This document shows, piece after piece, positions 6,150 through 62,311 of a DNA stretch of 64,000 nt. The notes beneath the pieces were generated by a model that worked only from the letters and a program-made list of their open reading frames with translations, made no database searches and had not been told where the DNA came from. This DNA comes from Acidobacteriota bacterium (GTDB taxonomy: Bacteria > Acidobacteriota > Vicinamibacteria > Vicinamibacterales > Fen-181). The stretch spans positions 1-64,000 of the forward strand of contig PMZR01000053.1 in the NCBI GenBank assembly GCA_003170135.1, written 5' to 3'. Both the position numbers and the translations under genes were made by a program. The stretch's first letter is position 1. Every line of letters starts with the position of its first letter.

Positions 6150-6205
6150 CAGTCGACAGTTGACAGTCGACAGTTGACCGTTGACCGTTGACAGTCAACA
6201 GTCCA
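6150..6205. repeat. Heptamer array A1: (CAGTYGA/CCGTTGA)x8
   Basis: CAGTCGA CAGTTGA CAGTCGA CAGTTGA CCGTTGA CCGTTGA CAGTCAA CAGTCCA, exact 7-nt register, between convergent genes. Confidence 0.95.
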
Positions 6206-6231
6206 TCGCGTCCGGGTGTACTGCCGACTGA

Positions 6232-7128
6232 TCAGAACATCATCCCCGCCTGCGGCTCCTCGAACGGGAAGATCAGCAGCGGTCCGGGCGCCTGGTCGAT
6301 CACCTTCCGCATCGTCGTCCGCTGCTCCGGCTCCCAGCCCGCCACCCATGCGATGACGATCAGGTCCGTGTGATGTTCGGCGGCGAACTCGACGATGACG
6401 TCGGCCGGCTCGCCGCAGGCGAAGAACAGTCGCATGCGCAGCGCCGGCGGCGGAACGCCCAGCGCCACGAAGCGGTCCATGAACTCGCGCGCCCACACCG
6501 GCCACTCGTGCTGCGGTTGATCGAGATAGCGCGGCGCCATCAGCGCGCCCGGCTCGCCGGGCGGCGGCGCGCCGGTCGAGGCGATGTGCAGCACCGCCAG
6601 TTCCGCGTGCGCCTTCTCGGCGAGATCCGACGCGCGCGCAATCGCCGCGGCGGTCGTCGGGATGCCGTCGTGCGGCAGCAGGATCTGGTGGATCGACCAC
6701 GAGTCGAACGCCTGCTCGGGCGGCACGATGACGATCGGGCAGGGCGTCGCGCGCAGCACGTCGCGCGTCACCGATCCCAGGGCGCCCCGCCCCGCCCCCT
6801 GCACGCCGCGCGAGGACATCACGATCAGCCGGCTGTCGAGATCGCGGGCCTGGTGCACGATTTCCGCGGCCGGCTGGCCGGTCCGCTGATCCAGCACCGT
6901 GCCGTCGAGCTGGTCCCGTGTCAGGTGAAGGCGCTGCGCCATGCTGCGCGCCGACAGCCGTTCGCTGCTGACATGCAGCAGATGCAGGGTCGCGCCCTCC
7001 GCCGCGGCCAGGGCCCTGGCCACCGGCAGCGCGGCCGCCGCCTCCGGCGAACCGTCCAGGGGCACGACGAGCGTGGAAGCGCGCACCTCGGCCGGCGGCG
7101 GTATTGTCGCAGCAGCTTCGTTGTGCAT
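6232..7128 (-). CDS. Universal stress protein, two UspA domains
   Basis: 298 aa from ATG at 7128; 'LVVPLDGSPEAAAALPVARALA', 'LIVMSSRGVQGAGRGALGSVTRDVLRATPCPIVIV'. Confidence 0.9.
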   Translation of the reverse strand: MHNEAAATIPPPAEVRASTLVVPLDGSPEAAAALPVARALAAAEGATLHLLHVSSERLSARSMAQRLHLTRDQLDGTVLDQRTGQPAAEIVHQARDLDSRLIVMSSRGVQGAGRGALGSVTRDVLRATPCPIVIVPPEQAFDSWSIHQILLPHDGIPTTAAAIARASDLAEKAHAELAVLHIASTGAPPPGEPGALMAPRYLDQPQHEWPVWAREFMDRFVALGVPPPALRMRLFFACGEPADVIVEFAAEHHTDLIVIAWVAGWEPEQRTTMRKVIDQAPGPLLIFPFEEPQAGMMF

Positions 7129-7144
7129 CGTGCCCTCCCGCAAG

Positions 7145-7180
7145 TTCGGACTCCGGACTTCGGACTCCGGACTCCGGACT
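7145..7180. repeat. Heptamer array A2: (TYCGGAC)x5
   Basis: TTCGGAC TCCGGAC TTCGGAC TCCGGAC TCCGGAC T; contributes two bases of the downstream gene's stop codon. Confidence 0.95.
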
Positions 7181-10100
7181 AAACTTGTTCCCAGTCCCCC
7201 CAACCGCTCTGCTCGTGGCGGGCTTTCCACCGGCCGCCCGGCGTCGCGCGCAACTCGCGCCCGCCCTCGAGCGCCACGACCATCGGTTCCGCGCCGGCCA
7301 CGCCGACTTCGACGCTCCGCGTCACGCGATCGAGCTCCACGGTCAGATGCCGTCCGCGCCATTGCACCGGGAAGCGCAGGCTGCTCCACGTGCGCGGCAG
7401 GTGCGGATCGAGGATCACGCCGTCGTTGCGCGGCCGCAGCCCGCCGATGCCGAGGACGGCGGCCTGCCACAAACCGCCCAGCGCCGCGATGTGCACGCCG
7501 CCGGACGCATTGCCCATGTTGTTCGCGAGGTCGATCTCGGACGCCTGCCGGAACAGTCTGTCGAACAGGACGTCGTCGCACAGGCGCGCGGCGACCAGCG
7601 CGTGCAGCGCCGGGCTGAGCGAGCTGCCGTGGGCGGTCCGCGGCTCGTAGTAGCGGAAGTTCGCCTCGTGCACGTGGCGCGGGAACTCGTCCCACAGCAA
7701 TGCAGTCAGCGCCACCACGTCGGCCTGCTTCACCACCTTCGACTTCTGCAGCCGCTCGCGCTGCAGGATGATGTCCATCGGCGCGTTGCGCGGCTCGTAG
7801 CTCGACAGCGAGATGTCCTCCAGGCGGAAGTACCCCTCGAACTGCTCGAACAGGCTGGAGCGCCGGTCGAAGCCGGTCTTCATCACGGCGGCGATCTCCT
7901 GCCACCGGCCCGGCTCGTCCGGTTCGATCCCCAGCCGCGCGACGAGCGCCTGCCAGGCCTGCGGCCAGCGGTCGGCGAGGAGGCGCGCCGTCTCGGCGGC
8001 GCGCGTCAGGTTCCACTGCGCCATGACGTTCGTGTAGGCGTTGTCGTCGATCGTCTCGTGGTACTCGTCGGGTCCGATCACGCGACGGATGTGAAACAAG
8101 CCGTCGGCCTCGATCGTGCCCCGGCTCGCCCAGAACCGCGCGGTGTCGACGATGATCTCGGCGCCGTACTCCACGAAGAAGCGGTCGTCGCCGGTCACGA
8201 GCCAGTACTGCCAGACGGCGTAGGCGATATCCGCGCTGATGTGATGCTCCTCGTCGCCGGTCAGGATCCGCACCACCTCGCCGCCCGGCGCGATGGCCAC
8301 CGTCGGGGTCATCTCGTCGCCCGTGTCGGTCGATTCCCACGCATAGAGCGCACCGCGGTAGCCGTGCGCCTGCGCCTTGCGCCTCGCGCCCGGCAGCGTG
8401 TGGTAGCGGTACTCGAGCAGGCTGCGCGCGGCCGCCGGGTCGGTGTAGACGTAGAAGGGCAGGGCGTAGATCTCCGTGTCCCAGAACACGTGGCCGCGAT
8501 ACCCCTCGCCGGTCAGCGCGCGCGCGCCGATCGACACGCGCGGGTCGTCGGGGTTCGCGGCGCTCACGAGGTGGTAGATCGCGAAGCGCAGCGCGCGCTG
8601 CGCCTCCTCGTCGCCGCCGACGCAAACGTCCGCCGACTGCCACCGTTCCGCCCACGCCGCCGTGTGCGCCTTGACGATGTCGCCTGCGTCCCGCCGGACG
8701 GCGACTGCCAGGCGGCGCGCCGCCGTCGCGGGCTGGCCGGCGGCGCCGCTGCCGCGATCCACCGTCAGGAAGCGGTCGAGGCGCATGTGGTCGCCGACCC
8801 GCGCGTCCCAGTCCCAGGCCTCGATCAGGGCATCCGCGTGGGCCTCGGTGGCCGGCTGTCGATGCTGCTCGTCCTGGCACGTCGCGACGGCTGCCGTTGC
8901 GAACGCGACGGACCTTCCCGTCGTGGCCATCTGGACGAACACCGACCAGGGCTCGGCGACCGAGGGCGCGTGTACCAGTCGCAACGACGGCGCCTGGTGC
9001 GCGGGCGCGGCGCCCCAGCGTTTGCGACGCACCGGCGAGAGCCCGATATGGCTTTCCACGCGCACATGCCCGGTGTAGTTCTCGGCCATGATGGTGGCGC
9101 CCTGGACGGCGAGCGCGCGATCGGCCAGCGACGCCAGGCGCAGGAACTGCAGGCGGGTCACGCGTCCCGCCTCGTCGCGGTGCAGCCATTCGCGCCACAG
9201 CACGCCGTGTTCGAGATCGAGCAGCCGCCGGTGCTCGAGCGTGCCGCCGGATTCGAGCGACAGCGCGCGGCCGTCCACCAGGACGCGCAGGTCGGTCCAG
9301 TCGGCGAGCACCATCAACCCGGGAATCGTGTTCCAGCTCGGCTCGATATCGAACACGCCGGCGACGAACGTCGCCGGGTCAGACAGTGACGTGCCCTCGG
9401 CCACTGAGCCGCGAATGCCGAGCGCGCCGTTGCCGACGGCGAACAGCGATTCGATCTCGTGCTCCCGCGCCAGCACGAAGCCACGGTCCTCGAGTGCCCA
9501 CGCCTCGTCCTGCGTGGGCGTGACGGCCCAGGGCGCGGACGGTGGGCGGACGAGCACGCCGGGCGCTGCCGCGCCGGCCTGGCTTCGCTCGGCACCGAAG
9601 CCAGACAGGTACCGCGAGAATTCCCCGAGGTGCGAGACCACCAGGTCCGCGCCGTGCTCGCGCAGCGCCTCGGCCTGCCCCGATTCGTCCACGCCGACCA
9701 CCTTGAAGCCGCCGCGCTTGCCGGCTTCGACGCCTGAAATCGCGTCCTCGAAGACGACCGCGCAATCCGGCGCGACCTGCAGGCGACGGGCGGCCTCGAG
9801 GAACGTGTCGGGCGCGGGTTTGCCCGGCAGGTGCAGGCGCTCGGCTTCCATGCCGTCGACATGCGCATCGAACAAATCGAGGATGCCGGCCAATCTGAGG
9901 ATCGCGCCGCAGTTCTTGCTCGACGAGACGACCGCGGTCTTCAGTCCACGCGCCCGCGCGTCGCGCACCAGCGACACCGCTTCCGGAAACGTCTCGACGC
10001 CGTGTTCGCCCAACGCCTGCTCGAAGTACCGGTCTTTTCGATTGCCGAGGCCGGCGATCGTTTCGTGATCCGGCGGATCGGCGGCCGATCCCCACGGCAG

Positions 10101-10370
10101 CGAGATGCTGCGCGCGGCGAGGAAGCTCTGGACGCCGTCGTAGCGCGGCTTGCCGTCCACGTAGCGACGGTAGTCGGCCACCACGTCGAATGGCACGAAC
10201 GAGGCGCCGGTGCGCTGCGCGTTGGCGGCCAGGTACTCGTCGAAGAGCCGTTTCCACGCCGCCGCGTGCAACGTGGCGGTCCGCGTCAGGACGCCGTCGA
10301 GGTCGAACAGCAGGGCCCGCACGTCCGTGAAGATCGGCTGGGATGTGGTGGTTGTGGCCGTCGGGCGCAT
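7179..10370 (-). CDS. Beta-phosphoglucomutase-like HAD domain fused to GH65 disaccharide phosphorylase
   Basis: ATG at 10370; N-term HAD '[22 protein letters not shown]...[24 protein letters not shown]'; C-term GH65 '[27 protein letters not shown]'. Confidence 0.92.
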   Translation of the reverse strand: [1063 protein letters not shown]

Positions 10371-10451
10371 AGAGGCCGGAAGAAGAGCAAGAAGAGCGCC
10401 ATCCTGCAGTTCAGCCGGGAACGCATGGGGTCGGTGGCTTATGATTCCCGT

Positions 10452-11909
10452 ATGACGCGCTCCGAGCAGATCCTCGTCGTCGATGTCGAGGGCATCGATC
10501 CGTCCGCCGACGGCGCGGGGTACGCCACGGTGGACGGCCGGCGGCTGCTCATCGACTACGCGATTCCCGGCGAGCGGGTCGAGCTGCGGATCGAGGCGCA
10601 TGGCGGCCGCACGACCCTCGGAGACATCACGCGCGTCGTCCGGCCGTCGCCGCATCGGGTGACGCCGGGCTGCCCGTCCTTCGGCCCGTGCGGCGGGTGC
10701 ACGTGGCAGCACATCGCGTCGAACGAGCAGCGGCGATTGAAGGAGCAGCTGCTGCAGGCGCTGTTGAACCAGGCACTCGGACGCGCCGCCCCGCAGGTGC
10801 AGCCGACGCTGACCGGCCATGAGGGCGACACCACGCCGTGGGGCTTCCGCAACAAGGCGCATTTCGTCCTTGCAGCCGGCTCACGCGCGGGCGGTCTCGT
10901 GCTCGGGCATTACCGCCGGCGATCGCAGGCGGTCATCGAGGTGGACGCGTGTCCGGTGCACGCGGAGCAGGCCAACCGCGTGGCGTTTGCGGTGCGCGAC
11001 GCGCTCGTGCGGGCGCGAGTCGGCGGGGCCACGCCGGACGGCCACCGCGGCGTCGCGCGGCACATCGTCGTGCGCGCGACCGAGACGCCGCGGGAAACGC
11101 TGGCGACGCTGGTCGTGACGCGCAATGAGAAGAGCCTTCGTCCCGCGGTCCGCGCCCTCGTCCAATCGCCCGGCGTTCCGGACGGCCTGCACCTCAACGT
11201 CAACGATCGGCCCGGGCCGTACCTGTTCGGCACCGAGACGCGGCGGCTGCACGGGCGCGACCGCGTGCGCGAGACCATCGCCGGCGTGTCGTTCCTGATC
11301 TCGCCGACGGCCTTCTTTCAGACCAACGTGCGCGCGGCCGCGGCCATGGTGGAGTGCGTGCTGGAGCAGGCCGGCGAGCCGGACACGGTTCTCGATCTGT
11401 ACGCGGGCGCCGGGCTGTTTGCGCTGCCGCTCGCCACGCGCGGTGCCCGCGTCACGGCGGTGGAGGAGAATCGCGAGGCGGTCGAGGACGGCGAGGCGAG
11501 CCGGCGCTTCAACCGGATCGCCGAGGCCGCGTGCCGGTTCGTGCGCGCGCGGGCCGAGGATTTCGCCGGCACCGGTGGACGCCGCGCCGCGTCCACGCCC
11601 GATCTCGTCATCCTCGATCCACCCAGGGTGGGATGTCCGCCCGGCGTCCTCAACTGGATCTGCGCGTCGCTCCGGCCGCCGCGCATCATCTACGTATCCT
11701 GCAATCCCGAGGCACTCGCCGCCGATCTCCGGCAGGCGTCCGCCGCTGGATACGCCCTTCAGATCGTTCAGCCCGTCGATATGTTTCCGCACACGGCGCA
11801 CATCGAAACGGTTGCGGTGCTGCGCACCGTGCGAACGCCCGAGGAGAGCGCGCAGGTGACGCGGATGGTCAAGGAGGCGCCCGGGGTCAAGCAGATGGCG
11901 AACGCCTGA
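10452..11909 (+). CDS. 23S rRNA (uracil-5-)-methyltransferase, RlmD/RumA-like, with [4Fe-4S] Cys motif
   Basis: 'CPSFGPCGGCTWQHI', 'VLDLYAGAGLFALPLA', 'LVILDPPRVGC', 'IIYVSCNPEALAADL'. Confidence 0.92.
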   Translation: MTRSEQILVVDVEGIDPSADGAGYATVDGRRLLIDYAIPGERVELRIEAHGGRTTLGDITRVVRPSPHRVTPGCPSFGPCGGCTWQHIASNEQRRLKEQLLQALLNQALGRAAPQVQPTLTGHEGDTTPWGFRNKAHFVLAAGSRAGGLVLGHYRRRSQAVIEVDACPVHAEQANRVAFAVRDALVRARVGGATPDGHRGVARHIVVRATETPRETLATLVVTRNEKSLRPAVRALVQSPGVPDGLHLNVNDRPGPYLFGTETRRLHGRDRVRETIAGVSFLISPTAFFQTNVRAAAAMVECVLEQAGEPDTVLDLYAGAGLFALPLATRGARVTAVEENREAVEDGEASRRFNRIAEAACRFVRARAEDFAGTGGRRAASTPDLVILDPPRVGCPPGVLNWICASLRPPRIIYVSCNPEALAADLRQASAAGYALQIVQPVDMFPHTAHIETVAVLRTVRTPEESAQVTRMVKEAPGVKQMANA

Positions 11910-11975
11910 CCCACCGACCCCGCGCGTGCGCTGAAACGCCTGCATGGCGTCATGGTTGGTCGGATCCGCCTTGTC

Positions 11976-12045
11976 AGGCTTCGGGCTCCAGGCTCCGGGC
12001 TTCGGCGGACGATGGTGGCTTCGGGCCGCAAGGCTCCGGGCTCGA
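11976..12045. repeat. Heptamer array A3a: (RGGCTYC)n, two blocks
   Basis: AGGCTTC GGGCTCC AGGCTCC GGGCTTC at 11976-12003, then GGCTTCG GGCCGCAA GGCTCCG GGCTCGA at 12017-12045. Confidence 0.85.
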
Positions 12046-12116
12046 GCCGCAGGTTCCAGCAGGGCAGGCCGACTCACGTTGACACGGCGTAGCGCCGCGG
12101 CGGATCATCGGCCGTT

Positions 12117-12171
12117 CAGGAGTCCGGAGTCCGGGGTCCGGTGTCCGAAGTCTGGCCCGGAGCCCGGAGCC
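12117..12171. repeat. Heptamer array A3b: (CCGGAGT)n
   Basis: CAGGAGT CCGGAGT CCGGGGT CCGGTGT CCGAAGT CTGGC CCGGAGC CCGGAGC C; close upstream of the ggt start. Confidence 0.93.
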
Positions 12172-12189
12172 TTTCGAAGGGGAGTTGCG

Positions 12190-14037: not shown

Positions 14038-14042
14038 GGTCG

Positions 14043-14104
14043 TCGTTACTCGTTAGTCGTTGGTTGTTGGTTGTTGGTTGTTGGTCTGGGTCGTTGGTCG
14101 TTGG
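14043..14104. repeat. Heptamer array A4: (TYGTTGG)n
   Basis: TCGTTAC TCGTTAG TCGTTGG TTGTTGG x3 TCTGGG TCGTTGG TCGTTGG; fills the ggt-amidase intergenic gap. Confidence 0.95.
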
Positions 14105-14110
14105 TCTGCT

Positions 14111-15691: not shown

Positions 15692-15709
15692 GCGAAACGG
15701 CTTGACGCT

Positions 15710-16954: not shown

Positions 16955-17052
16955 GATGAGCTCCAGTTCGGAGTGGCGCGCGTAGAGCCGCGATTCTACC
17001 GGTCGCGTGCGAGCCGAGGCAAGCGACCGGACATGGCCACGGCCCGCGAGAC

Positions 17053-17470: not shown

Positions 17471-17536
17471 CGCGGGCGCGCGCAAAATAGGGTCTGGCAC
17501 ATTTCTTCAACCAGTCTCGAGATTGCGAGGCCACCG

Positions 17537-18016: not shown

Positions 18017-18111
18017 GACGCAATTTCCGGCGATCGTCCATCCGCACTTGATACGGTCCTCGCCATCGCGATACCGTTGAGCTGCTCTGCTTCGAGAGCG
18101 GGCAGGTCTTC

Positions 18112-21275: not shown

Positions 21276-21466
21276 CTCGCGTCCCTCAGCCGCACCAGCA
21301 GATCCACGATCGCGCTCCACTGGGTCATCAAGTCTGCCGGCACGTGTCGCTGGGCGAGAGCGCGCTGCGTCCTTTGCGCGTCCTGCAACAATCCGTCGAT
21401 AATCTGTGGGAATCCGAGAAAATCTGCGGCTGAATATCGTCCGGCGGAAGCGGCGACTGCTCGCCG

Positions 21467-23726: not shown

Positions 23727-24686
<960 letters not shown>

Positions 24687-25978: not shown

Positions 25979-25999
25979 GTCCGGGGTCCGGGGTCTCGA
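25979..25999. repeat. Short heptamer block A5: GTCCGGG GTCCGGG GTCTCGA
   Basis: Three 7-nt units upstream of the VOC protein; short, so weak on its own. Confidence 0.45.
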
Positions 26000-33144: not shown

Positions 33145-33172
33145 ACCGCCTGCCGCCTACCGCCTACCGACT
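33145..33172. repeat. Heptamer array A6: (ACCGCCT)x4
   Basis: ACCGCCT GCCGCCT ACCGCCT ACCGACT between htrA (+) and the M19 relic (-). Confidence 0.85.
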
Positions 33173-37745: not shown

Positions 37746-37756
37746 GCGGGACCAGG

Positions 37757-37782
37757 GGGCCCCGGGCTCACGCTCGGGGCCC
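37757..37782. terminator. Strong hairpin after the Rh-channel gene
   Basis: GGGCCCCGGGC-TCAC-GCTCGGGGCCC, 11-bp stem including one G:T. Confidence 0.65.
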
Positions 37783-37793
37783 GCCGCGTCGAG

Positions 37794-37816
37794 CAGGACT
37801 GAAGTCCTGCGCCACA
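37794..37816. repeat. Dispersed palindrome-containing 23-mer, copy 2 (CAGGACTGAAGTCCTGCGCCACA)
   Basis: 21/23 identity with 2181-2203. Confidence 0.85.
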
Positions 37817-37831
37817 ACAACAGGCGCGGCG

Positions 37832-38781: not shown

Positions 38782-38839
38782 GCTCCACGCACCTGTGGTA
38801 TCTTCGCCGCGACGTTTGCCCCAGACGCCTTCCCGGGAA

Positions 38840-38939
38840 TCAGGAGTCAGGCATCAGGAGCCAGGAGTCAGGAGCCGGAGGCGCGAGCCCGGAGCCTGGA
38901 GCCTGGAGCTGGAGCCTGAAAGTAATCAGGAGTCAGGCG
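38840..38939. repeat. Heptamer array A7: (TCAGGAG/CCTGGAG)n, about 14 units
   Basis: TCAGGAG TCAGGCA TCAGGAG CCAGGAG TCAGGAG CCGGAGG CGCGAG CCCGGAG CCTGGAG CCTGGAG CTGGAG CCTGAAA GTAA TCAGGAG TCAGGCG|ATG. Confidence 0.96.
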
Positions 38940-42418: not shown

Positions 42419-42499
42419 GGCTCAAGGCTTAAGACTTATGGCCTGTTTGGCTCACGGCCCTGAGCCGGACAATGCCCTAAGCCTTAAGCCTTAAGCCTT
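42413..42499. repeat. Heptamer array A8 in inverted orientation forming an 83-nt hairpin (42417-42499) between convergent genes
   Basis: ACTTAAG GCTCAAG GCTTAAG ACTTATG ... CCCTAAG CCTTAAG CCTTAAG CCTTG; outer stem 23/26, inner stem TGTTTGGCTCA/TGAGCCGGACA. Confidence 0.93.
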
Positions 42500-51247: not shown

Positions 51248-51261
51248 CTCGTCTTCCTCGG

Positions 51262-51288
51262 AAGGGGCGGCCGACGGTCGCCCCTTTT
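51262..51288 (+). terminator. Rho-independent-type terminator
   Basis: AAGGGGCG-GCCGACGGT-CGCCCCTT-TT following the 50465-51247 gene. Confidence 0.75.
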
Positions 51289-51370
51289 CCCTGCCTCTGC
51301 TTGAAGAAAGACCGACCACTGCGGTACCATTTCCTCTTTGCGGACCTTCGCAACGTCCCTGCAGTACGCC

Positions 51371-54300
51371 ATGCCGGATTCCTCTGGCGTCGTCGCCGCC
51401 GCTGATCTCGTCATTCGCGGGGCCAGGACGCACAACCTCAAGAACGTCGACCTGACACTGCCGCTCGAGCGCCTGGTCGTGATCACCGGCGTCAGCGGGT
51501 CGGGCAAGTCGTCGCTCGCCTTCGACACGATCTACGCCGAAGGGCAGCGCCGCTATGTCGAATCGCTGTCCGCCTACGCGCGCCAGTTCCTCGAGCGGAT
51601 GGAGAAGCCCGACGTCGATCGCATCGACGGGCTCGCGCCCGCGATCGCCATCCGCCAGAAGAACAGCATCCGCAACCCGCGGTCCACCGTCGGCACCACC
51701 ACCGAGATCCACGACTACCTGCGGCTGCTCTACGCGCGCATCGGGCGGACTTTCTGCCGCAACTGCGGGCAGGAGGTGGTGCGCGAGAGCCCCGAGGTCG
51801 TCGCGAGCCGGTTGGCGGCGCTGCCCGAGGGCACCCGCCTGGTGCTCGGCTTCGACATGCCCGTGGTCGCGGTGCCGGCCGAGGCCCCTGCTGCGGCGGC
51901 AAACGGCAACGGTGACGAGGCGACCGACGAGACGGACGCGGAAGGGCAGCTCCCGTTGGAGGACGTCGAGGCAAGCGCCGCGGCACCCGCTGCGCAGACC
52001 ACGGCGATCAAGGAGACGATCGACACGCTGCGCCGGAAGGGCTTCGGGCGCCTGCTTGTCGATGGGCGCGCGGTAGACTTCGGCGACATCGATGTCGAGG
52101 TTGAGCCCTCGTCTGCCGCATCCGCCGCGGCGTCGGCCGACGCCGGGCCTGGGCGGATTTCGCTCGGCGACCGCGGCGTGCTGCACGTCGTTGTTGACCG
52201 CATCCGGGTCCAGCCGGGCGTCGAGAGCCGGCTGACCGACTCGATTGAAACGGCGTACGTGGAAGGCGGCGGCGCCGCGTTCGCCTACGAGGCCGGGGAG
52301 ATGTCCGACGTCGCGCCTTCTGACCCGACTTCGGACCCTCGGACTTCGGACTTCGGACCAGGTCGGTTCCACCTGTTCAGCGAGCGCTTCGAGTGCCGGC
52401 CGTGCGGCCTCTCGTACGAGGATCCCCAGCCGCGCCTGTTCTCCTTCAACAACCCGTTCGGCGCCTGCCCGACGTGCCATGGCTTCGGCAACGTCATCGA
52501 ACTCGACCTGGATCTCGTCGTGCCCGACCCGACGAAGTCGATCGCGCAGAATGCGATCGAGCCGTGGAGCAAGCCGTACTACCGGGTCAACCTCGGCGAC
52601 CTGAAGAAGGCCGCGCGCAAGGCCGGCGTACGCCTCGACGTGCCGTGGCAGAGCCTCACCGACGAGGAGCGCCGGTTCGTGGTTGACGGCGACGGGGCAG
52701 ACTACGCGGGGATCCGCGGGTTCTTCGACTGGCTCGAACGCAAGAAGTACAAGGTGCACGTGCGGGTGTTCCTGTCGCGCTACCGCGGGTACCTGACGTG
52801 CCCCGATTGCCGGGGCGCGCGGTTGCGGCAGGAGGCGCGCGACGTGAAGGTGGGCGGGCGCTCGATCGACCAGATCTCGTCGCTCAACGTCCGGGAGGCA
52901 CAGCGGTTCTTCCGAGATCTCGAGCCGACCGAGAAAGAGGCGGTAATTGCGGGGAAGGTCCTCGGCGAGATCCGCCGCCGCCTGGCGTTCTTGAGCGATG
53001 TCGGTCTCGATTACCTGACGATCGATCGGCTGTCCTCGACGCTGTCGGGGGGCGAAGCGCAGCGCATCAACCTCGCCACGTCGCTCGGATCGGCGCTGGT
53101 CGGCACGCTCTACGTGCTCGACGAGCCGTCGGTCGGCCTGCATCCGCGCGACAACGACCGGCTGATCGCGATCCTGCGGCAGCTGCGCGACCAGGGCAAC
53201 TCGGTGCTGGTGGTCGAGCACGACGCGGACATGATCCGGGTCGCGGACCACGTCGTCGATCTCGGCCTCGGCGCGGGCGAGCAGGGCGGGAGAATTGTCT
53301 ACTCGGGCGACCTCGCCGGCCTGATGCAGGAGCCGCGCTCGCTCACCGCGAAGTACCTCCGGACGGAGCTCGCCATCCCGGTGCCCGCCGTGCGGCGCAA
53401 GGGCACCGGCCAGGTGCTGCGCGCCATCGGCGCCAGCGAGCACAACCTGAAGAACCTGACCGTCGAGATCCCGTTGAACACGCTCACGTGCATCACCGGC
53501 GTGAGCGGCTCGGGCAAATCGACGCTCGTGCACGACATCATCCACCCGGCCGTCAAGCGCGCGAAAGGCAGCTGGGAGCGGCGGGTCGGCGCCTTGCGGA
53601 AGATCGAGGGCACCGAGTACGTCACCGACGCGGTGCTCATCGACCAGACGCCCATCGGCCGGACGCCGCGGTCGAACCCGGTCACGTATCTCAAGGCGTT
53701 CGATCCGATTCGCGAGCTGTTCGCGTCCACCAAGGACGCGCGATCGCATGGCCTGACCGCGAGCCACTTCTCCTTCAACGTGCCCGGCGGGCGCTGCGAG
53801 GCGTGCGAGGGCGAAGGGCAGGTGCGCGTCGAGATGCAGTTCCTCGCCGACGTCTTCGTGCCCTGCGATCAGTGCGACGGGAAGCGCTTCAAGCCCCAGG
53901 TGCTCGAGGTGAAGTACCGCGGCCGGAACGTGCACCAGGTGCTCGACATGACGGTGCGCGAGGCGCTCGCCTTCTTCGCGAGCTCGCCGAAGGTCGTGCG
54001 CCGCCTGCAGGTCCTCGACGAGATCGGCCTCGGCTATCTCCGCCTCGGCCAGCCGGCGACGACGCTGTCGGGCGGCGAGGCGCAGCGCATCAAGATCGCC
54101 GCGCACCTCTCGTCGCACACCGGCGAGCGCCTGCTCTACATCCTGGACGAGCCGACCACCGGGCTGCATTTCGACGACATCGCCAAGCTGCTGACCGCAT
54201 TCCGGAAGTTGATCGCCGCGGGCCACTCGCTGCTCGTCATCGAACACAACCTCGACATCATCAAGACCGCCGATCACGTGATTGACCTCGGGCCCGAAGG

Positions 54301-54442
54301 CGGCGACGAAGGCGGCTGGATCGTGGCCACCGGCACGCCCGAACAGATCGCACAGGATCCGGTGTCCCACACCGGGCGCTACCTGGCGCCGGTACTCGCG
54401 GTCGGGCGCGCGCACGCCTATGCGAGCGCGAAAACGGAGTGA
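51371..54442 (+). CDS. uvrA: Excinuclease ABC subunit A
   Basis: '[39 protein letters not shown]', '[37 protein letters not shown]', second ABC half complete. Confidence 0.98.
52318..52358. repeat. Heptamer array A9 inside uvrA: (TTCGGAC)n
   Basis: TTCTGAC CCGAC TTCGGAC CCTCGGAC TTCGGAC TTCGGAC, translated as '[15 protein letters not shown]'. Confidence 0.88.
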
Positions 54443-55159
54443 ATGGTGGCGGCCGTTCGCAGTTCGGGGTCGGCACGCGGCAGGCGGGGCCCCGGTGAGA
54501 CGCCACAAACGCTCGCCCGCGCCTTCTATGCCCGGCCAACCCTGACCGTCGCACGCGATCTCATCGGCAAGGTCCTCGTGCATCGTTCGCCCGCGGGTGT
54601 CACCAGCGGGCGCATCGTCGAGGTCGAGGCGTACATTGGCGAAGACGATCCGGCGTGCCACGCCGCGCCGGGGCCGACCCGGCGCAACGAGCCGCTCTAC
54701 GGCGAGCCCGGTCACGTCTATGTCTACTTCAACTACGGCATGCACGACATGTTCAATGTCGTGACGGAGCGGCGCGGCAAGCCGGCCGCGATTCTCGTGC
54801 GCGCGCTCGAGCCGCTCGACGGTCTCGAGGTGATGGAGCAACGGCGATTGGCCGCGGGCGGCCGGCAGCCGGCGGCACCGCGCAGAGCGATTCCGCCCGG
54901 GCACCTGTGCCGCGGACCGGGCAACCTCGCGCGCGCGATGGGGATCACGCTCGCCGACAATCGCCTGGACCTGTGCGGCCCGGAGTTGTTCATCGAGGAT
55001 CGCGGGTTGGATGTCGGGCAGGTCGCCTGGTCACCGCGGATCGGGATCAGGGTCGGCGCCGACCGGCCGTGGCGATGCTACGTGGTGGGGAGCCGGGCGG
55101 TGTCGGGCCCGACTGCTTCGCCAGCCAGCGTGCGAAGTTCGTCTGCTGCGTTGCCTTGA
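54443..55159 (+). CDS. DNA-3-methyladenine glycosylase (AAG/Mpg family)
   Basis: 'FYARPTLTVARDLIGKVLVH', 'RIVEVEAYIGEDDPACHAAPGPTRRNEPLYGEPGHVYVYFNYGMHDMFNVV'; ATG abuts the uvrA stop. Confidence 0.95.
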   Translation: MVAAVRSSGSARGRRGPGETPQTLARAFYARPTLTVARDLIGKVLVHRSPAGVTSGRIVEVEAYIGEDDPACHAAPGPTRRNEPLYGEPGHVYVYFNYGMHDMFNVVTERRGKPAAILVRALEPLDGLEVMEQRRLAAGGRQPAAPRRAIPPGHLCRGPGNLARAMGITLADNRLDLCGPELFIEDRGLDVGQVAWSPRIGIRVGADRPWRCYVVGSRAVSGPTASPASVRSSSAALP

Positions 55160-57734
55160 AGTCGATGCAGCCTTGAATCTGCTCGAGCGTCTGCGCGAGC
55201 GCGTGGCTGCCGCCCATTCGCTTTCCGCCAAAGAACGCTTTCACGTCGTCCCGCATGTCGGCGTCGCAGAAGCCTGTGGCCGCCATCAGCACGTGTTCGG
55301 CCGCCTGATCCGCGCCGCTCTTCGCCGCGATGTCGTTCCAGTGCGCCTTGACGAACGCCCAGGCCGCCGGTCGCGCCGCCGTGTTCTCCAGCGCTGCGGC
55401 TATCGCGTCGGCCGCGTCCTGGCCGTGCACGTGCTCCGAGATCGCATAGCCGAGCGCCCGCTCGACGAGCGCCGGGTCGCCGAAATCGCCAAGCGCGCTC
55501 ACGTTGCGCAGGTACACGTCGGGCGACGAGGCATGTTCGATGTTCGCCGCCAGGCGGTCGAGCACCGCGCCGTCGCCGCTTGCGGCCGCCAGGCGCAGAA
55601 AGACCGCGAGCATCGCGGCATCGCCGGCGCTATTCGCGTCACCGTCCATCACCAGCGCGCGCGCCTTGCCGAGGACGTCGGGATCGCGGCCGACGGCGCC
55701 GAGAAAGTACAGAAGCGTCGCGCGCAGGCCGCGCCTCGCGACTTCGTTGTCGTCGGTCGAGGGCTGGTCCAGGCCGGCGGCGAGCGGCGCCAGCAGCCGG
55801 CGCACCCACCCGTGGTAGGCGTCACGGTCGGCGCCCACGGCCAACCGATCGTCCACGACCCGGAGCGTCTCACCCATGCGCTCGATGATCCGGGCGTAGC
55901 GTTCGGTCGAGTAGCCACCGACGAGCGACAGGTACTCGCCGACATCGAGCCGGCCCGCGCGGGCGAGCGCCCATTGATCGTCGAGCAGCCGCAGCCGCTC
56001 GGCCGGCGTCAGGTGCGTTTCCGCGTCCTGCGCCAGGCGCGCGAGCATCTCCGGCGCGTACGCGGAACGAAAATACCCGGCCGCCTCGGCGTTCCCGAGC
56101 ACGAGCGCGTTGCAGCCCGCGAGGTCGAATGCCTGCTCCTTGGCCGACAGCAGGTGGTTCGACGAGGCGGCGGGAACGCCCGGTGGCGGCGCAACCGGCC
56201 GCGTGGAGACCGGGATCGCCCACACCGGCGACGTGGCGGCCGCGCGCGTCGAATCGATCCAGAAGCGCTGCTGGGCGAGCGCGAGCGACGAGGTGGCGTC
56301 GGTCACGCAACGGGCGGCGATCGAGACGACCGGCACGCCGGGCTGTTCGAGGAACGTCCGGAGGATCTGGCCGGTGGCGCGGACCGTGTTGTCGTCGAGC
56401 GCGGCCCACAGGTCCTCGGCACCGGCGTTCGCGTACGCGAATTGCCGGATGAAGCCATTGACGGCGACCCGGAATGGCTCGGGCCCCATGGCCGCTTCGA
56501 CCATGCGAAAGACGGCGCCCGCCTTCTGGTACACGATCGCGTCGTACGACTCGTCGATCTCGGCCGGCGTCGTCACCGTCGTCCGCGCGGGGTGCGCCGA
56601 CGCGAGGCCGTCAGAGGCCATCCCGTCCTCGGCCGACGCCACTTCGTCCAGTTCGACGTGCCATTCCGGTTTCCATGCCCGAATCGGCTTGGTCTCCATG
56701 AAGGTCGCGAACCCTTCCTTCAGCCACAGGTCGTTCCACCACTTCATCGTCACGAGGTCGCCGATCCACTGGTGCGCCATCTCGTGCGCGATCGTCGAGG
56801 CCACCAGTTTCCGGCTCTCGATCGAGGCGCCCTGCGGATCGACGAGCAGGTCGTGCTCGCCGAAAAAGATCGCGGCCGTGTTCTCCATGCCGCCGCTTTC
56901 GAAGTCGGGAATCGCGATCAGGTCGAGCTTGCCGAAGGGGTACTTCACCGTGAAGTACTGGTCGTAGAACCGCAGGAACGCCTGCGCGGCGTCGAGCGCG
57001 AACCGTCCGAGCGCCTCTTTCCCCGCGATGGCGCAGACACGGATCGGGACGCCGTCGCTCTGCGCCTCGAGGCACCGGAAATCGCCGGCCGAGAGGGCCA
57101 TCAGGTACGTGGACATCTTGCGCGTGGTCGCGAACTTCACCGTGTGCTCGTCCGGCCCGGGCCCCGGCGTGTCGGACAGCACGCGGCCGTTGGAGATCGC
57201 GACGTCGCCGGCAGGCACCACCGCCGTGAGCAGGAACGACGCCTTCATGTCCGGCTGGTCGAAACAGGGGAAGGCGCGGCGGGCCTCGGTCGCTTCGAAC
57301 TGGGTCGCCGCGTACTTGCGGCCGTTCGCGCGGCCGACGTAGAGGCCCCGAAGGCCCGCCTGCAGCCTCGCCGTGTATTCGATGCGGATGCGCGCGGGTC
57401 CGGCGACGAGCCGCCTCCGGACGCTGAAGGTCGCGGTGTCATGCCGTTCGTCGACGGCAACCGTGGCGGGCTGGCTGCTGAAGCCCGATGCGATCGTCAC
57501 CTGCTTGAAGGAGATGCCGACGGCATTGAGCGTGACCCGCGCGGTCGGCTTGACGATGGTGACGAGGATCTGCTCCGAGCCGGTGAAGGTGTCGTCGTGG
57601 AAATTGAGCGCCAGCCGCAGCTCGTACTGATCGGGGACGACGTCGGGCGGGAGCGGTTGTGCAAACCCCAGGGCCGGCGCGCCGATGACGAGCGCGAGCG
57701 CGACGACGAGCGCGCGAAGACGCGTGATGCGCAC
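55047..57734 (-). CDS. M1-family aminopeptidase
   Basis: GTG at 57734; 'ESGGMENTAAIFFGEHDLL', 'VASTIAHEMAHQWIGDLVTMKWWNDLWLKEGFATFMETK' (HExxH + E). Confidence 0.96.
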   Translation of the reverse strand: MRITRLRALVVALALVIGAPALGFAQPLPPDVVPDQYELRLALNFHDDTFTGSEQILVTIVKPTARVTLNAVGISFKQVTIASGFSSQPATVAVDERHDTATFSVRRRLVAGPARIRIEYTARLQAGLRGLYVGRANGRKYAATQFEATEARRAFPCFDQPDMKASFLLTAVVPAGDVAISNGRVLSDTPGPGPDEHTVKFATTRKMSTYLMALSAGDFRCLEAQSDGVPIRVCAIAGKEALGRFALDAAQAFLRFYDQYFTVKYPFGKLDLIAIPDFESGGMENTAAIFFGEHDLLVDPQGASIESRKLVASTIAHEMAHQWIGDLVTMKWWNDLWLKEGFATFMETKPIRAWKPEWHVELDEVASAEDGMASDGLASAHPARTTVTTPAEIDESYDAIVYQKAGAVFRMVEAAMGPEPFRVAVNGFIRQFAYANAGAEDLWAALDDNTVRATGQILRTFLEQPGVPVVSIAARCVTDATSSLALAQQRFWIDSTRAAATSPVWAIPVSTRPVAPPPGVPAASSNHLLSAKEQAFDLAGCNALVLGNAEAAGYFRSAYAPEMLARLAQDAETHLTPAERLRLLDDQWALARAGRLDVGEYLSLVGGYSTERYARIIERMGETLRVVDDRLAVGADRDAYHGWVRRLLAPLAAGLDQPSTDDNEVARRGLRATLLYFLGAVGRDPDVLGKARALVMDGDANSAGDAAMLAVFLRLAAASGDGAVLDRLAANIEHASSPDVYLRNVSALGDFGDPALVERALGYAISEHVHGQDAADAIAAALENTAARPAAWAFVKAHWNDIAAKSGADQAAEHVLMAATGFCDADMRDDVKAFFGGKRMGGSHALAQTLEQIQGCIDFKATQQTNFARWLAKQSGPTPPGSPPRSIATAGRRRP

Positions 57735-57736
57735 CG

Positions 57737-58909
57737 CTAGTAGCCGGGCTGCCGCCGCCGGCTGCCCTGGACGACGGGCACGCTCAACTCGATCGGGCGG
57801 CCGTCGCGGATGATGCCCAGCTTCGCCGTGCCGCCAATCTTCGCGTCCGCCACGATCCGCAGCAGCTGCGACGTGTCTTCGACCATCTGCCCGTTGAACG
57901 ACGTGATGACGTCGCCCCGGCGGAGGCCCTCGGCGGACGCCGTCTGGTACACGTTGTAGACGAGCGCGCCGCGCGTGCTGCGAAGCCCGAGCTGCGCGGC
58001 CAGTTCGGGCGTGATCGTCGTCACGTCCACCGCGCCAATCGAGCCGCGCCGCACTTCCTTGTACTTGAGCAGGTCGTCGGCGATCTTGCGCGCGAGGTTG
58101 CTCGGCACGGCGAAGCCGATGCCCTGGTAGCCGCCGCTCTCCGAGTAGATCGCCGTGTTGATGCCGACCAGTTCGCCGCGCGCGTCGATCAACGCCCCGC
58201 CGGAGTTCCCCGGGTTGATCGCCGCGTCGGTCTGGATGAAGTCTTCGTACCCCGCGACGCCCAGGTTTGCGCGTCCGACGGCACTGACGATGCCGAGCGT
58301 GACGGTCTGGTTCAGCTGAAACGGACTGCCGATGGCGAGCACCCACTGGCCGACCCGGAGTTTCGACGAGTCGCCCCAGGGCACGGCCGGGAGGTTGGCC
58401 ACGTCGATCTTGAGCAGCGCGATATCGGTCATCGGGTCGGTCGCGACCAGCCGGCCGCGCACCTGGCGCTTGTCGGGCAGCACCGCGTTGATCTCGCGCA
58501 CCGTCCCGCCGTTGCCCGCCACCACGTGGTTGTTGGTGATGACGTAGCCGTCCGGGGAGATGATCACGCCCGAGCCCAGGCTGAGGGACCGCTGGTCCTG
58601 GTCGCCCACTTCGTCGCCGAAGAAGTAGCGGAAGAACGGATCGTCGGAAAGCGGTGAGCGTCGCGTGCGCACGATCTGGAGCGACGACACGTTGACGACG
58701 CCGCTGACGGCGCGGGCGGCGACGTCGCTGAAGTCCGGCATGCGGGCGAGGGGGGTGGCGAACGATTGTGACACGGGCGCGACGGGCGGGGCCACAGGCG
58801 CGGCGACGGTCTCGTCGAGCGCGCGCATCCGGCCGGTGAGCACGAAGCCAGCCGCGAGCCCGCAGCTGACGAGGATGACGGACAGCACCAGCCGCTTGAT
58901 CATGGGCAC
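57737..58909 (-). CDS. DegP/DegQ-type HtrA serine protease with PDZ
   Basis: 'YVITNNHVVAGNG', 'DIALLKIDVANLPAVPWGDSSKLRVGQWVLAIGSPF', 'TDAAINPGNSGGALIDARGELVGINTAI'. Confidence 0.96.
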   Translation of the reverse strand: MPMIKRLVLSVILVSCGLAAGFVLTGRMRALDETVAAPVAPPVAPVSQSFATPLARMPDFSDVAARAVSGVVNVSSLQIVRTRRSPLSDDPFFRYFFGDEVGDQDQRSLSLGSGVIISPDGYVITNNHVVAGNGGTVREINAVLPDKRQVRGRLVATDPMTDIALLKIDVANLPAVPWGDSSKLRVGQWVLAIGSPFQLNQTVTLGIVSAVGRANLGVAGYEDFIQTDAAINPGNSGGALIDARGELVGINTAIYSESGGYQGIGFAVPSNLARKIADDLLKYKEVRRGSIGAVDVTTITPELAAQLGLRSTRGALVYNVYQTASAEGLRRGDVITSFNGQMVEDTSQLLRIVADAKIGGTAKLGIIRDGRPIELSVPVVQGSRRRQPGY

Positions 58910-58961
58910 GAGCCTCGCCGGACGCGTGTCTCCGAGAAGCGGCCGGCTCGAACGACCTCCG

Positions 58962-59363
58962 CTAGCGAATCTCGATGCGCCGGGGCCGGGCCGTGGCCTT
59001 GGGAATCGTCACCGAGAGCACGCCGTCGCGCAGGTCCGCCCCGACGTTCTCCTCGTCGATGGGCTGCGGCAGGGCGAAGGTCCGCGAGAACTGACCGTGG
59101 CCGCGCTCGACGCGGTGGAACTGCTCGTGGGGCGTCTCGCGGGTCGGGCGCTGACCCTTGAGGATGACCTTCCCGTCCTGCACGGCGATCTGGAAGTCGT
59201 CACGCGAGAGGCCGGGGAGTTCGACAAAGATCACGTAGTGGTCGGCGGTCTCATACAGGTCGACCGCCGGGACCCAGCCGGACGCGTGATCGCCGGCCAG
59301 TCGGTTCAGTCGCTCCTGCAGCGCGAGCAAATCCTGGAGCGGATCCCACCGGGCAAAGGCCAC
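58962..59363 (-). CDS. Hsp20/alpha-crystallin family protein
   Basis: '[44 protein letters not shown]...[36 protein letters not shown]'. Confidence 0.97.
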
Positions 59364-59489
59364 ACCTCATGCTAGCACGCTTTCCCGCCATCGGGCAGGC
59401 CACGGCCGGGCCGCGTTGGAGGCGGATCCTCACATGTGCTAGGATTCGAAGGATCTGCGGCATCCAACTTTCCCAAAGAGTACCTCTGC

Positions 59490-60053
59490 ATGGCTTCCAT
59501 TCCAGCGACCCGGTTGCGCAAGGGCATGTTGATCAAGATCGAGAACGAGCTGTGGCGGATTCTCGAGCTTCAGCACATCACGCCGGGGAACTGGCGCGGC
59601 ATGGTCAAGGTCAAGCTGCGCAACCTGCGCACCGGTTCGCTGTCCGACCAGCGGCTGCGCTCGGAGGACATCGTCGAACGCGAAACGCTCGACGAGCGCC
59701 AGGTGCAGTACCTCTACAACGACGCCAACGGCTATCACTTCATGGATACGTCCTCGTACGAACAGTTCCAGCTCTCGCCCGAAGCGCTCGGGGACGCGAC
59801 GAATTACCTGGTCGCCGAGGGCCTGGTAAAGGTCGAGTTCTATGGCTCCGAGCCGGTCGGGGTCGAGATGCCGCAGACCGTCGACCTGCGGGTCGAAGAC
59901 ACCGCGCCCGGGATCAAGGGCGCCACGGCGAGCGCGCAGGTGAAGCCCGCGAAGCTGGAGACCGGGCTCGTCATCAACGTGCCGCCCTTCGTGAACCCGG
60001 GCGACGTCGTCCGCGTCAACACCGAGACCGGCGAGTACCAATCGCGCGTGTAG
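59490..60053 (+). CDS. efp: Translation elongation factor P
   Basis: '[44 protein letters not shown]...[47 protein letters not shown]'. Confidence 0.97.
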
Positions 60054-60097
60054 GCGGGCGACCGGCGGCGACGACGCAACCTCTTTCGGGGATTCCC

Positions 60098-60685
60098 ATG
60101 GACATCGTTCGGCATCCGCAGACCGGTTGGATCGAGGTGATCACCGGCAGCATGTTCAGCGGCAAGAGCGAGGAGCTGATTCGGCGCCTGCGCCGTGCCC
60201 AGATCGCGCGCCAGAAGGTGCAGATCTTCAAGCCCCGCTTCGACACGCGGTACAGCGACGATCACATCGTCTCCCACAGCGACATGCGCATTCCGTCGCA
60301 GCAGGTCGCCGACTCGAAGGATCTGCTCGAGCAGGTGTTGCCCGAGACCGAGATCATCGGGATCGACGAGGGCCAGTTCTTCGATCAGGATCTGCCCGGC
60401 GTCTGCAACCAGCTGGCGAACATGGGCAAACGCGTCATCGTCGCCGGACTCGACCAGGATTACCTGGGGAAGCCGTTCGAGCCGATGCCGCAGCTGCTGG
60501 CGGTTGCCGAGTACATCACCAAGACGCTGGCGATCTGCGTGGTCTGCGGGAATCCCGCGAACCACACGCAGCGGCTGGTGGCGAGCCAGGATCGCGTCCT
60601 GCTGGGAGCGCAAGGCACCTACGAGGCGCGGTGCCGGCACTGTTACGACCCCGAGCTGTCCAAGGCCGGTCCGGCGCCGGTCTGA
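60098..60685 (+). CDS. tdk: Thymidine kinase
   Basis: '[32 protein letters not shown]', '[11 protein letters not shown]', Zn motif CVVC...CRHC. Confidence 0.97.
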
Positions 60686-60822
60686 GGGCCGCGCGACCCA
60701 TCCGGATCGGCGGCGTCAGTCGCGGCGAACCCGCACCGTCGAGATGGATTGAAGATTGCAAGACCCAGCCAAGGGGCACTCTCGTCCCCCCGTCAACAAC
60801 GGGCCCTTTGAGAAGGTCAGAC

Positions 60823-61377
60823 ATGACGCTCCAGGACATCCTGCTGCTGCTCGGCGCCGGCTTCCTGGTGGCTAACGTCCGGACGGCGTTCGACTTCCTG
60901 CGCTTTCTCAAGCGGCGATCGTCGGCGCTCCTGGTCTGGCTGCCGCCCAAACCGCCCTACTACGGCATGCTCGTCGCCATTGGCGTGCTGATGGGCCTCC
61001 TCATCGTTTACAACATCTCGCTGTCGCCGATCCGGTCAGGCCGGCAGTTGTTCGGCGAAGCCATGATGTTTCTCTACTACACGGCGGCGATCGCCATGAA
61101 CCGGGCCATCGCGCGCGGTTTCTACGCGGACGGCATCTGGGCCGAAGGCGGCTTCATGACTTACCGCCAGATCGGCGCGATCAGCTGGCGCGAGGGCAAG
61201 GACGTCACGCTGCTGCTCACGGCGCGGATGCGCCACTTCGCCCGCACGCTGGTCGTACCAGGGAACTTGTACGGCGCGGCGCGGCGGCTGCTGCGCGACA
61301 AGATCGAGGCCCACGACATCAAGTTCCTGCACACCGGGCTGGATCTTGGTCTGGGCGACGGGCGCGACAAGGTGTGA
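60823..61377 (+). CDS. Membrane protein of unknown function
   Basis: 184 aa, N-term TM helices, 'FYADGIWAEGGFMTYRQIGAISWREGKDVTLLL' soluble domain. Confidence 0.7.
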   Translation: MTLQDILLLLGAGFLVANVRTAFDFLRFLKRRSSALLVWLPPKPPYYGMLVAIGVLMGLLIVYNISLSPIRSGRQLFGEAMMFLYYTAAIAMNRAIARGFYADGIWAEGGFMTYRQIGAISWREGKDVTLLLTARMRHFARTLVVPGNLYGAARRLLRDKIEAHDIKFLHTGLDLGLGDGRDKV

Positions 61378-61398
61378 AAGAGGCTTAGGAGGCTCCCC

Positions 61399-62259
61399 AT
61401 GGCTGCCCGTCCGACCTGGAAAGGGTTCCTGAAAGTCAGTCTCGTCAACATTCCCATCAAGGTATTTCCCGCCTCGGAATCCGCCGCCGCGCTGTCTTTC
61501 AACCAGCTGCACGGGGAGTGCAGGACGCGCATCCAGCAGAAGCGCTGGTGCCCGCAGTGCAACCGCGAGGTTCAGAACAGCGAGATCGTCAAGGGATACG
61601 AGTTCGAGAAGGGCCGCTGGGTGGTGCTCACCGACGAAGATATCGCGAAAGTGCGCCCCGAATCGACGCGTGTCATCGACCTGGTGCAGTTCGCCGACGA
61701 GGGCGACATCGACCCGCTGTACGTCGATCGGGCGTACTACCTGGCGCCGGACGGCCCGATGGCCAGCGAGGCGTTTGCCGTGATGCGCGAAGGCATGCGG
61801 GGCAAGGCGGGCGTCGGCAAGCTGGCGCTCTACGGCCGCGAGTACATCGTCGCCGTGCGGCCGCGGGAGCGCGGGCTCGTGATGTACACGTTGCACGTGG
61901 CCTCCGAGGTGCGCGCGATGGATCAGATCGACGAGCTGAACGGCCTGCCCACCTCGGTCAAGCCCGAACAGCTGAAGCTCGCCCAGCAGGTCATTGCCAC
62001 CTTCGAAGGCGAACTGAATCTCGCCGACTACCACGACGAGTATCGCGAGGGGCTGCGCAAGATCATCGACGCGAAGATCGCGGGCGAGGAGGTGGTGGCG
62101 CCTGAAGAGAAGGCGGCGCCAAAGGTCGCGGATCTGATGGAGGCGCTCAAGCGGAGCCTGGACGCGGTCAGCGCGTCACGCAAGAAGCCCGCGAAGGTGG
62201 CCACGATGCCGAAGCGCGCCGCCGCGGCGGAACGGCCGCGGGCGAAGAAGCGCGCGTAG
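61399..62259 (+). CDS. ku: Bacterial Ku, non-homologous end joining
   Basis: 'WKGFLKVSLVNIPIKVFPASESAAALSFNQLHGECRTRIQQKRWCPQCNREV...VKGYEFEKGRWVVLTDEDIAKVRPESTR'. Confidence 0.97.
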   Translation: MAARPTWKGFLKVSLVNIPIKVFPASESAAALSFNQLHGECRTRIQQKRWCPQCNREVQNSEIVKGYEFEKGRWVVLTDEDIAKVRPESTRVIDLVQFADEGDIDPLYVDRAYYLAPDGPMASEAFAVMREGMRGKAGVGKLALYGREYIVAVRPRERGLVMYTLHVASEVRAMDQIDELNGLPTSVKPEQLKLAQQVIATFEGELNLADYHDEYREGLRKIIDAKIAGEEVVAPEEKAAPKVADLMEALKRSLDAVSASRKKPAKVATMPKRAAAAERPRAKKRA

Positions 62260-62276
62260 TGGGGGACCGGCCTGCA

Positions 62277-62311
62277 GGAATGTGGAAGATGGAATGTGGA
62301 GTGTGGAATGT
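62277..62311. repeat. Heptamer array A10: (GGAATGT)x5
   Basis: GGAATGT GGAAGAT GGAATGT GGAGTGT GGAATGT between convergent ku (+) and a small membrane ORF (-). Confidence 0.95.

What the first reader, a model, noticed from the sequence alone, without database searches (positions are those of the whole stretch)
6150..62311. Dispersed family of degenerate 7-nt-period arrays, each locus with its own heptamer
At least nine loci in 56 kb carry tandem blocks in strict 7-nt register (6150, 7145, 11976/12117, 14043, 33145, 38840, 42413, 52318, 62277), with weaker ones at 25979 and 26946. Heptamers differ between loci but are locally homogenised, and some are shared or inverted: TYCGGAC at 7145 and 52318, its complement at 12117, GGCTCCG/CGGAGCC at 11976, 12117 and 38840. 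All but one lie between genes, often at convergent ends or strand switches. Heptanucleotide short tandem repeats (STRR) are established in heterocystous cyanobacteria; I know of no description of a locus-variable heptamer family like this in this kind of genome. A constant period with changing sequence suggests a mechanism that measures 7 nt (slippage, a polymerase or repair process, or a protein reading 7-nt steps) rather than a transposed element.
Basis: partly seen in the sequence, partly recalled or inferred. Interest (0 to 1): 0.88.

Follow-up and report, generated by a model that had tools for sequence, protein, structure and literature searches.

The report
Genome-wide intergenic seven-base repeat arrays
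This soil-type acidobacterium carries roughly 900 short arrays of seven-base repeats in the gaps between its genes, laid out by strict rules seen before only for single repeat types in Xanthomonas and cyanobacteria, and between two sister species the repeat "dialect" at the same gap can be switched wholesale.

Summary
In 864 kb of this genome (Acidobacteriota, 5.8 Mb draft) there are 133 period-7 arrays against 0-12 for other periods, apart from the multiple 14. About 890 are expected genome-wide, nearly all intergenic and rare between divergent genes. The units fall into roughly ten "dialects" (GTCCGGA/GTCCGAA, GTGCGNN, GTCCYTG, AGTGGRT, GTTRACC and others), so "each locus its own heptamer" is only partly right. 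Three rules were found. (1) A unit is about 4 fixed plus 3 variable bases. (2) Arrays have fixed polarity: the GT-strand reads away from the nearer gene at either gene end. (3) Inverted pairs always run GT...AC (21:0). A congeneric pair of relatives in the same family, 97% identical, shows array sites kept while units change: 7-nt indels, whole-pair deletions, and wholesale CAGT to CAGC switches in both arms at 4 of 9 loci, with flanks 96-99% identical. The same layout is published for GGGNATC heptamers of Xanthomonas/Nostoc, so this is a new, multi-dialect variant of a known and unexplained kind. My best guess is intergenic stem-loop or gene-boundary elements that turn over in 7-nt steps. G-quadruplexes and REP/MITE transposition do not explain it.

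The parts
6150..6203 (+). heptad array CAGTYGA, between convergent genes (MacB/FtsX permease and Usp), 8 nt after the left stop
7147..7180 (-). heptad array; minus strand AGTCCGG/AGTCCGA (reads away from the GH65/HAD gene's 3' end); ends at that gene's stop
11977..12005 (+). weaker heptad array GGCTYCG
12119..12147 (+). heptad array GGAGTCC (GTCC dialect)
12155..12171 (+). 2.4 copies of GCCCGGA, about 33 nt before the gamma-glutamyltranspeptidase start
14043..14106 (+). heptad array GTCGTTG/GTTGTTG filling the 73-nt gap between gamma-glutamyltranspeptidase and amidase genes
25979..25995 (+). 2.4 copies of GTCCGGG, weak
33146..33169 (+). heptad array ACCGCCT at convergent gene ends
38836..38909 (+). 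two abutting arrays (GGAGTCA then GGAGCCT) upstream of peptidase C69 gene
42411..42438 (+). left arm of an inverted pair (TTAAGGC) between convergent SpoIIM-like and DUF58 genes
42474..42499 (-). right arm of the same pair (GCCTTAA = rc TTAAGGC), 35 nt from the left arm
52327..52358 (+). heptad array GACTTCG inside uvrA, in frame, in a loop whose length varies between relatives
62277..62312 (+). heptad array GGAATGT between convergent genes (Ku-like, left; opposite-strand gene, right)

Best explanation
These are Acidobacteriota members of the bacterial intergenic heptameric-repeat class. SHOWN: each array is a run (median about 5 units) of a 4-nt fixed core plus a 3-nt variable spacer. It is placed a few nt after a stop codon or about 16 nt before a start, with one strand (usually GT...) reading into the gap. 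It often sits opposite an inverted partner around a short palindrome, and it is scarce in divergent promoter gaps. SHOWN between two sister species: the sites persist while units are gained, lost, deleted or switched together in both arms. INFERRED: the paired arrays act as stem-loops at gene boundaries (transcript ends, bidirectional), with pairing of the 4-nt cores tolerating any 7-nt register. Slippage, hairpin template-switching and unit conversion keep rewriting them in 7-nt steps, so each lineage drifts to its own dialect. Single arrays would be partly decayed pairs.
For: Period 7 only. Placement: arrays in 23% of ++, 22% of +- and 14% of -- gaps but 7% of -+ gaps; median 7 nt from 3' ends, 16 nt from 5' ends. 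Polarity: 96/120 GTSC-type arrays, pairs L-before-R 21:0; 33/39 unpaired arrays; GT outward 87 against AC 30 over all units. Fixed core: 4.15 invariant columns against 2.02 when the same mismatches are scattered. Gene tails with arrays fold much more strongly (mean z -2.3 against -0.7). Palindromic centres: CAGTNNNTCACGCGTGANNNACTG in relative G300, GGTGCGCACC in G000. Sister species G300/G301 (97.2% identical): one exact 7-nt unit gained or lost; an inverted pair deleted between two CAGTT copies; CAGT to CAGC on the left together with ACTG to GCTG on the right at 4 loci. Gaps about 18 times denser in arrays than elsewhere (57 in 2,900 columns against 55 in 49,455).
Against: Shuffling unit order within arms does not weaken folding (mean fraction as stable 0.48 over 35 pairs), so there is no unit-by-unit covariation. 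About half the arrays have no partner, yet keep polarity. Arrays also lie before start codons. T-tracts are weak in G000 and absent in G300. A folding excess is expected of any inverted repeat. Nothing here shows transcription or termination.
Confidence: 0.42

Rival explanations
1. Pure mutational minisatellites: the replication machinery in these lineages slips in 7-nt steps (polymerase footprint), arrays grow wherever selection permits, and they have no function.
For: Period strictly 7 whatever the sequence; 7-nt indels, high indel density and homogenised arrays in G301; arrays fill gaps up to the stop codon and Shine-Dalgarno zone; the polymerase-footprint idea is in the literature (cited in PMC4692102).
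Against: Does not predict a fixed 4 + variable 3 unit, fixed strand polarity, or neighbouring spacers being no more alike than distant ones (G299 0.00 against 0.05 expected; G000 GTGC lag-1 0.12, lag-3 0.14).
Confidence: 0.27
2. Binding platforms for a protein that reads contiguous 7-bp steps, as the ribbon-helix-helix Omega/ParB of pSM19035 does on (WATCACW)n: the 4-nt core is the contact, the 3-nt spacer is free, and dialects follow changes of protein specificity.
For: Core-plus-free-spacer anatomy and 7-nt step; GTGCNNN arrays of G299 with 33 different spacers among 95; Omega dimers bind each 7-bp heptad and need >=4 contiguous (PMC9499535).
Against: No Omega_Repress family hit in the genome, though that search had no positive control. 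Several dialects coexist in one genome. A switch of many sites between species 97% identical is hard for point mutation under binding selection. Inverted pairing is not required by this model.
Confidence: 0.16
3. Remnants of a small mobile hairpin element (REP/REPIN, MITE or cyanobacterial SDR-like) that inserts in intergenic DNA.
For: Shared centre palindrome in G300; one G000 subfamily of 4 loci shares a ~40-nt core between GTGC arms; absence at some orthologous loci.
Against: With arrays masked, array gaps otherwise share no sequence; no target-site duplication seen; the clear absence looks like a deletion between CAGTT repeats; orthologous arrays are colinear unit by unit, including an idiosyncratic CGGT/CGAG unit; only two Y1-transposase-family genes in the genome.
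Confidence: 0.1
4. G-quadruplex (or i-motif) elements, as proposed for GGGNATC in Xanthomonas/Nostoc.
For: Same layout as those repeats (PMC4692102).
Against: Only 6 of 133 arrays contain a canonical G4 pattern on either strand; cores GTGC, CAGT, CAGC and GTCC cannot supply G-tracts.
Confidence: 0.03

Closest known systems
GGGNATC / GGGGAYT heptameric intergenic repeats of Xanthomonas and Nostoc (Rehm et al. 2015, PMC4692102)
   Same: 7-nt period; ~90% intergenic; 4-5 of 7 positions conserved; single arrays or convergent inverted pairs; nearest the ORF lying 5' on the repeat strand whatever its orientation; rare between divergent ORFs; site conserved but length variable between species
   Different: There one G-rich unit per genome, explained by G4 folding. 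Here about ten mostly non-G4 dialects in one genome, other dialects in relatives, and dialect switching at orthologous loci
TAACTGA direct repeats of Beggiatoaceae, cyanobacteria, Bacteroidetes (MacGregor 2015, PMC4679880)
   Same: heptamers, intergenic, indels in 7-nt steps between close strains, other heptamers mixed in (Microcystis)
   Different: mostly one unit, just upstream of start codons in one orientation in BOGUAY; here both gene ends and inverted pairs
Heptanucleotide STRRs of heterocystous cyanobacteria
   Same: dispersed tandem heptamers between genes
   Different: different phylum and units; not compared directly here (known from reviews and memory)
pSM19035 parS heptads bound by Omega/ParB (PMC9499535)
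   Same: contiguous 7-bp units, core plus flexible bases, direct and inverted arrangement
   Different: six plasmid sites and a known binder; no Omega family hit here

Membership tests
Bacterial intergenic heptameric repeats (Rehm type) | strict 7-nt tandem period, intergenic | tested here: met
   133 against 0-12; 69/79 intergenic
Bacterial intergenic heptameric repeats (Rehm type) | strand polarity relative to nearer ORF; single or convergent pairs | tested here: met
   96/120 and 21:0; 33/39 singles
Bacterial intergenic heptameric repeats (Rehm type) | under-represented between divergent ORFs | tested here: met
   7% of -+ gaps against 14-23% of others
Bacterial intergenic heptameric repeats (Rehm type) | G-tracts able to form G-quadruplexes, peak at four units | tested here: not met
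   6/133 with G4 pattern; no peak at four, roughly geometric unit counts
REP/REPIN | one conserved palindromic sequence family tagged GTAG or CGTC | tested here: not met
   no shared sequence outside arrays; GTAG is not a common core
REP/REPIN | RAYT transposase in the genome | tested here: inconclusive
   2 Y1_Tnp hits, not shown to be RAYTs
Intrinsic terminators | GC-rich hairpin followed by T-tract | tested here: inconclusive
   G299 arrays are flush with an outer A-tract (=T-tract on the other strand) in 71% against 0% on the inner side; G000 17-20%, G300 0-9%; many arrays single-armed
Omega-type parS heptads | cognate RHH protein of the Omega family | tested here: inconclusive
   no PF07764 hit but no positive control
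Cyanobacterial STRR | same units or cyanobacterial host | tested here: not met
   Acidobacteriota host by nearest named relatives

The most novel reading that the evidence does not exclude
A trans-acting factor (protein or template RNA) in these bacteria reads or writes DNA in 7-nt steps. Its specificity sets a genome-wide heptamer dialect, and a change of specificity rewrites orthologous intergenic arrays in a new species, both arms at once.
Probability: 0.12. Interest if true: 0.88.

Novelty: new variant of a known kind. Interest (0 to 1): 0.58.

Why it matters
Heptameric intergenic repeats have been noted in a few unrelated bacteria with a different explanation each time: G4, translational regulation, slippage. 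Here the same layout rules hold for about ten sequence-unrelated dialects in one genome and for other dialects across the phylum. That excludes G4 folding as the general cause and points to one shared mechanism. The sister-species pair with switched dialects makes the long-open question of why 7 directly testable.

Tried and rejected
Chance or composition: rejected. Coding periodicity: rejected (period 7 and intergenic). One REP/MITE family: rejected for G000, with one 4-copy GTGC subfamily having a shared core. Perfect nested hairpins maintained by covariation: rejected by the unit-permutation fold test, except a few arms close to the centre. G4: rejected. Canonical bidirectional terminators: not general. 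Long-range conservation of the array after the gamma-glutamyltranspeptidase gene: only 3 of 30 orthologous loci carry one, so not conserved beyond close relatives. Heptads searched by BLAST in the plasmid collection: no match, and a simple-repeat query is removed by the low-complexity filter, so uninformative. Nostoc plasmid record not held.

Full report
WHAT WAS CHECKED. The window is the first 64 kb of contig C109 of a 5.8-Mb, 141-contig genome. Its gamma-glutamyltranspeptidase has its best named hits in Acidobacteria MAGs (83 and 81% identity). I scanned for self-matches at each period, wrote a simple codon-based gene caller, and extended the analysis to 464 kb and then 864 kb of the same genome.

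IS IT REAL. Yes. In the window there are 8 period-7 arrays at score >=12 against 0 for nearly every other period, and 0.2 in simulations. In 864 kb there are 133 against 0-12 for other periods, except 14, which re-detects the same arrays; that extrapolates to about 890 in the genome. In the 464-kb sample 69 of 79 arrays are intergenic although about 88% of the sequence is coding. 52327-52358 lies in uvrA, in a loop whose length varies between relatives.

ANATOMY. (a) Dialects: units group into about ten families that recur at many loci, for example 297 places for TTCGGACTTCGGAC with <=1 mismatch against 12 for the reversed control. (b) Unit: sorted column conservation within arrays is 1.00, 1.00, 0.98, 0.96, 0.88, 0.73, 0.57, with 4.15 invariant columns against 2.02 when the same mismatches are scattered at random; that is about four fixed and three free bases. 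In a same-family relative (G299) GTGCNNN arrays have 33 different spacers among 95, and neighbours are never identical. (c) Placement: a few nt after stops (median 7) or about 16 nt before starts; 23% of ++ gaps, 22% of +- gaps, 14% of -- gaps, but only 7% of divergent gaps. (d) Polarity: 96 of 120 GTSC-type arrays read GTSC away from the nearer gene, irrespective of gene orientation; in gaps with both arms the order is always GTSC...GSAC (21:0); 33 of 39 unpaired arrays obey too; over all dialects GT is outward in 87 arrays and AC in 30. (e) Centres: paired arms flank short palindromes, such as GGTGCGCACC in G000 and CAGTNNNTCACGCGTGANNNACTG in G300.

RELATIVES. A GTSC-type heptad pattern (GTSCNNN x4) is found in 81 of 297 Acidobacteriota genomes, with very uneven counts, the highest here; others are rich in different cores, seen as high counts of the reversed control. 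Among 37 acidobacterial loci fetched blindly through a conserved enzyme, period 7 is the only over-represented period (11 against 0-2). Among 43 loci of other phyla it is not (3, all in one Algoriphagus locus). Same-family relatives each have their own dialect: G299 GTGCNNN, G300 CAGTKGY and CAGCNNN, G302 GAGCCYT, G298 GAGCCYT and AGCCACY.

EVOLUTION. G300 and G301 are 97.2% identical over the stretch compared. Of nine comparable loci picked as CAGT arrays in G300, three lack the array in G301 (one apparently by deletion between two CAGTT copies). One differs by exactly one 7-nt unit and one is mixed. At four the same gap holds CAGC units instead, with the right arm changed from ACTG to GCTG, flanks 96-99% identical, and at two of them colinear units including an odd CGGT/CGAG unit. 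Fourteen loci picked as CAGC arrays in G300 show no such switch; where arrays align, cores are nearly invariant and spacers change. Gaps are about 18 times denser in arrays than elsewhere, with 7 nt the commonest size above one. So sites persist, units turn over rapidly, and the core of both arms can change together. Because loci were picked in G300, the direction of change is not established.

MECHANISM. Gene tails with arrays have a strong folding excess (z -2.3 against -0.7), and both arms change core together. I therefore favour boundary stem-loops whose cores pair in any 7-nt register and which are rewritten by slippage, hairpin template-switching or conversion. This is inference. Unit order does not matter for folding, half of the arrays are unpaired, and T-tracts are clear only in G299. 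A heptad-reading protein, as Omega/ParB of pSM19035 does (PMC9499535), fits the core-spacer unit but no candidate is in hand. Pure slippage explains the period and indels but not polarity or fixed cores.

KNOWN OR NEW. Rehm et al. (PMC4692102) describe the same layout for GGGNATC in Xanthomonas and GGGGAYT in Nostoc, including polarity, convergent pairs and scarcity between divergent ORFs; MacGregor (PMC4679880) describes TAACTGA heptamers with 7-nt indels. I therefore call this a new variant of a known kind. What is added: the phylum, several sequence-unrelated dialects in one genome under one set of rules, exclusion of G4 as the general cause (6 of 133 arrays), and dialect switching at orthologous sites.

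CAVEATS. Gene calls are my own. Genomes are drafts, and arrays can be mis-assembled. The G300/G301 set is small. Arrays within one gap are not independent in the polarity test; the 21:0 and 33/39 counts are per gap. The core GTSC used in the polarity test was chosen after seeing the arrays, although the all-unit count did not depend on it. The literature held here is only open-access.

Noticed in passing
C109:68928-69000, C109:128672, C111:157803, C118:33940 (outside the window): REP-like perfect palindromes GTAGGGGCGCAACATGTTGCGCCCCTAC in gene gaps, a separate dispersed family.
   Followed up: partly
window 21276-21466: Member of a 9-copy dispersed intergenic family containing ATCTGCGG/CCGCAGAT motifs, unrelated to the heptads.
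   Followed up: no
window 37746-37831: CAGGACTGAAGTCCTG palindrome family, also at C111:36922 next to a heptad array.
   Followed up: no
C109:87923-88081, C118:103985-104429, C118:106992-107394, C118:59849-59991: Four GTGC/GCAC-armed elements share a ~40-nt inner core (CAAGAGATGAWGCGCGG...GTGCCGGCGCCTCC): the only heptad subfamily with a conserved core.
   Followed up: partly
L153-L172 (relative G299): GTGC arrays sit flush against an outer A-tract in 71% of cases; one locus (L165) has GTGC spaced by 9 instead of 7 nt.
   Followed up: partly
L126 (Algoriphagus mannitolivorans): Three strong period-7 arrays in 18 kb, the only ones in 43 non-acidobacterial loci.
   Followed up: no
window 61399-62259: Gene that looks like an NHEJ Ku protein (N-terminal sequence read by eye), next to the 62277 array; no link shown.
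   Followed up: no
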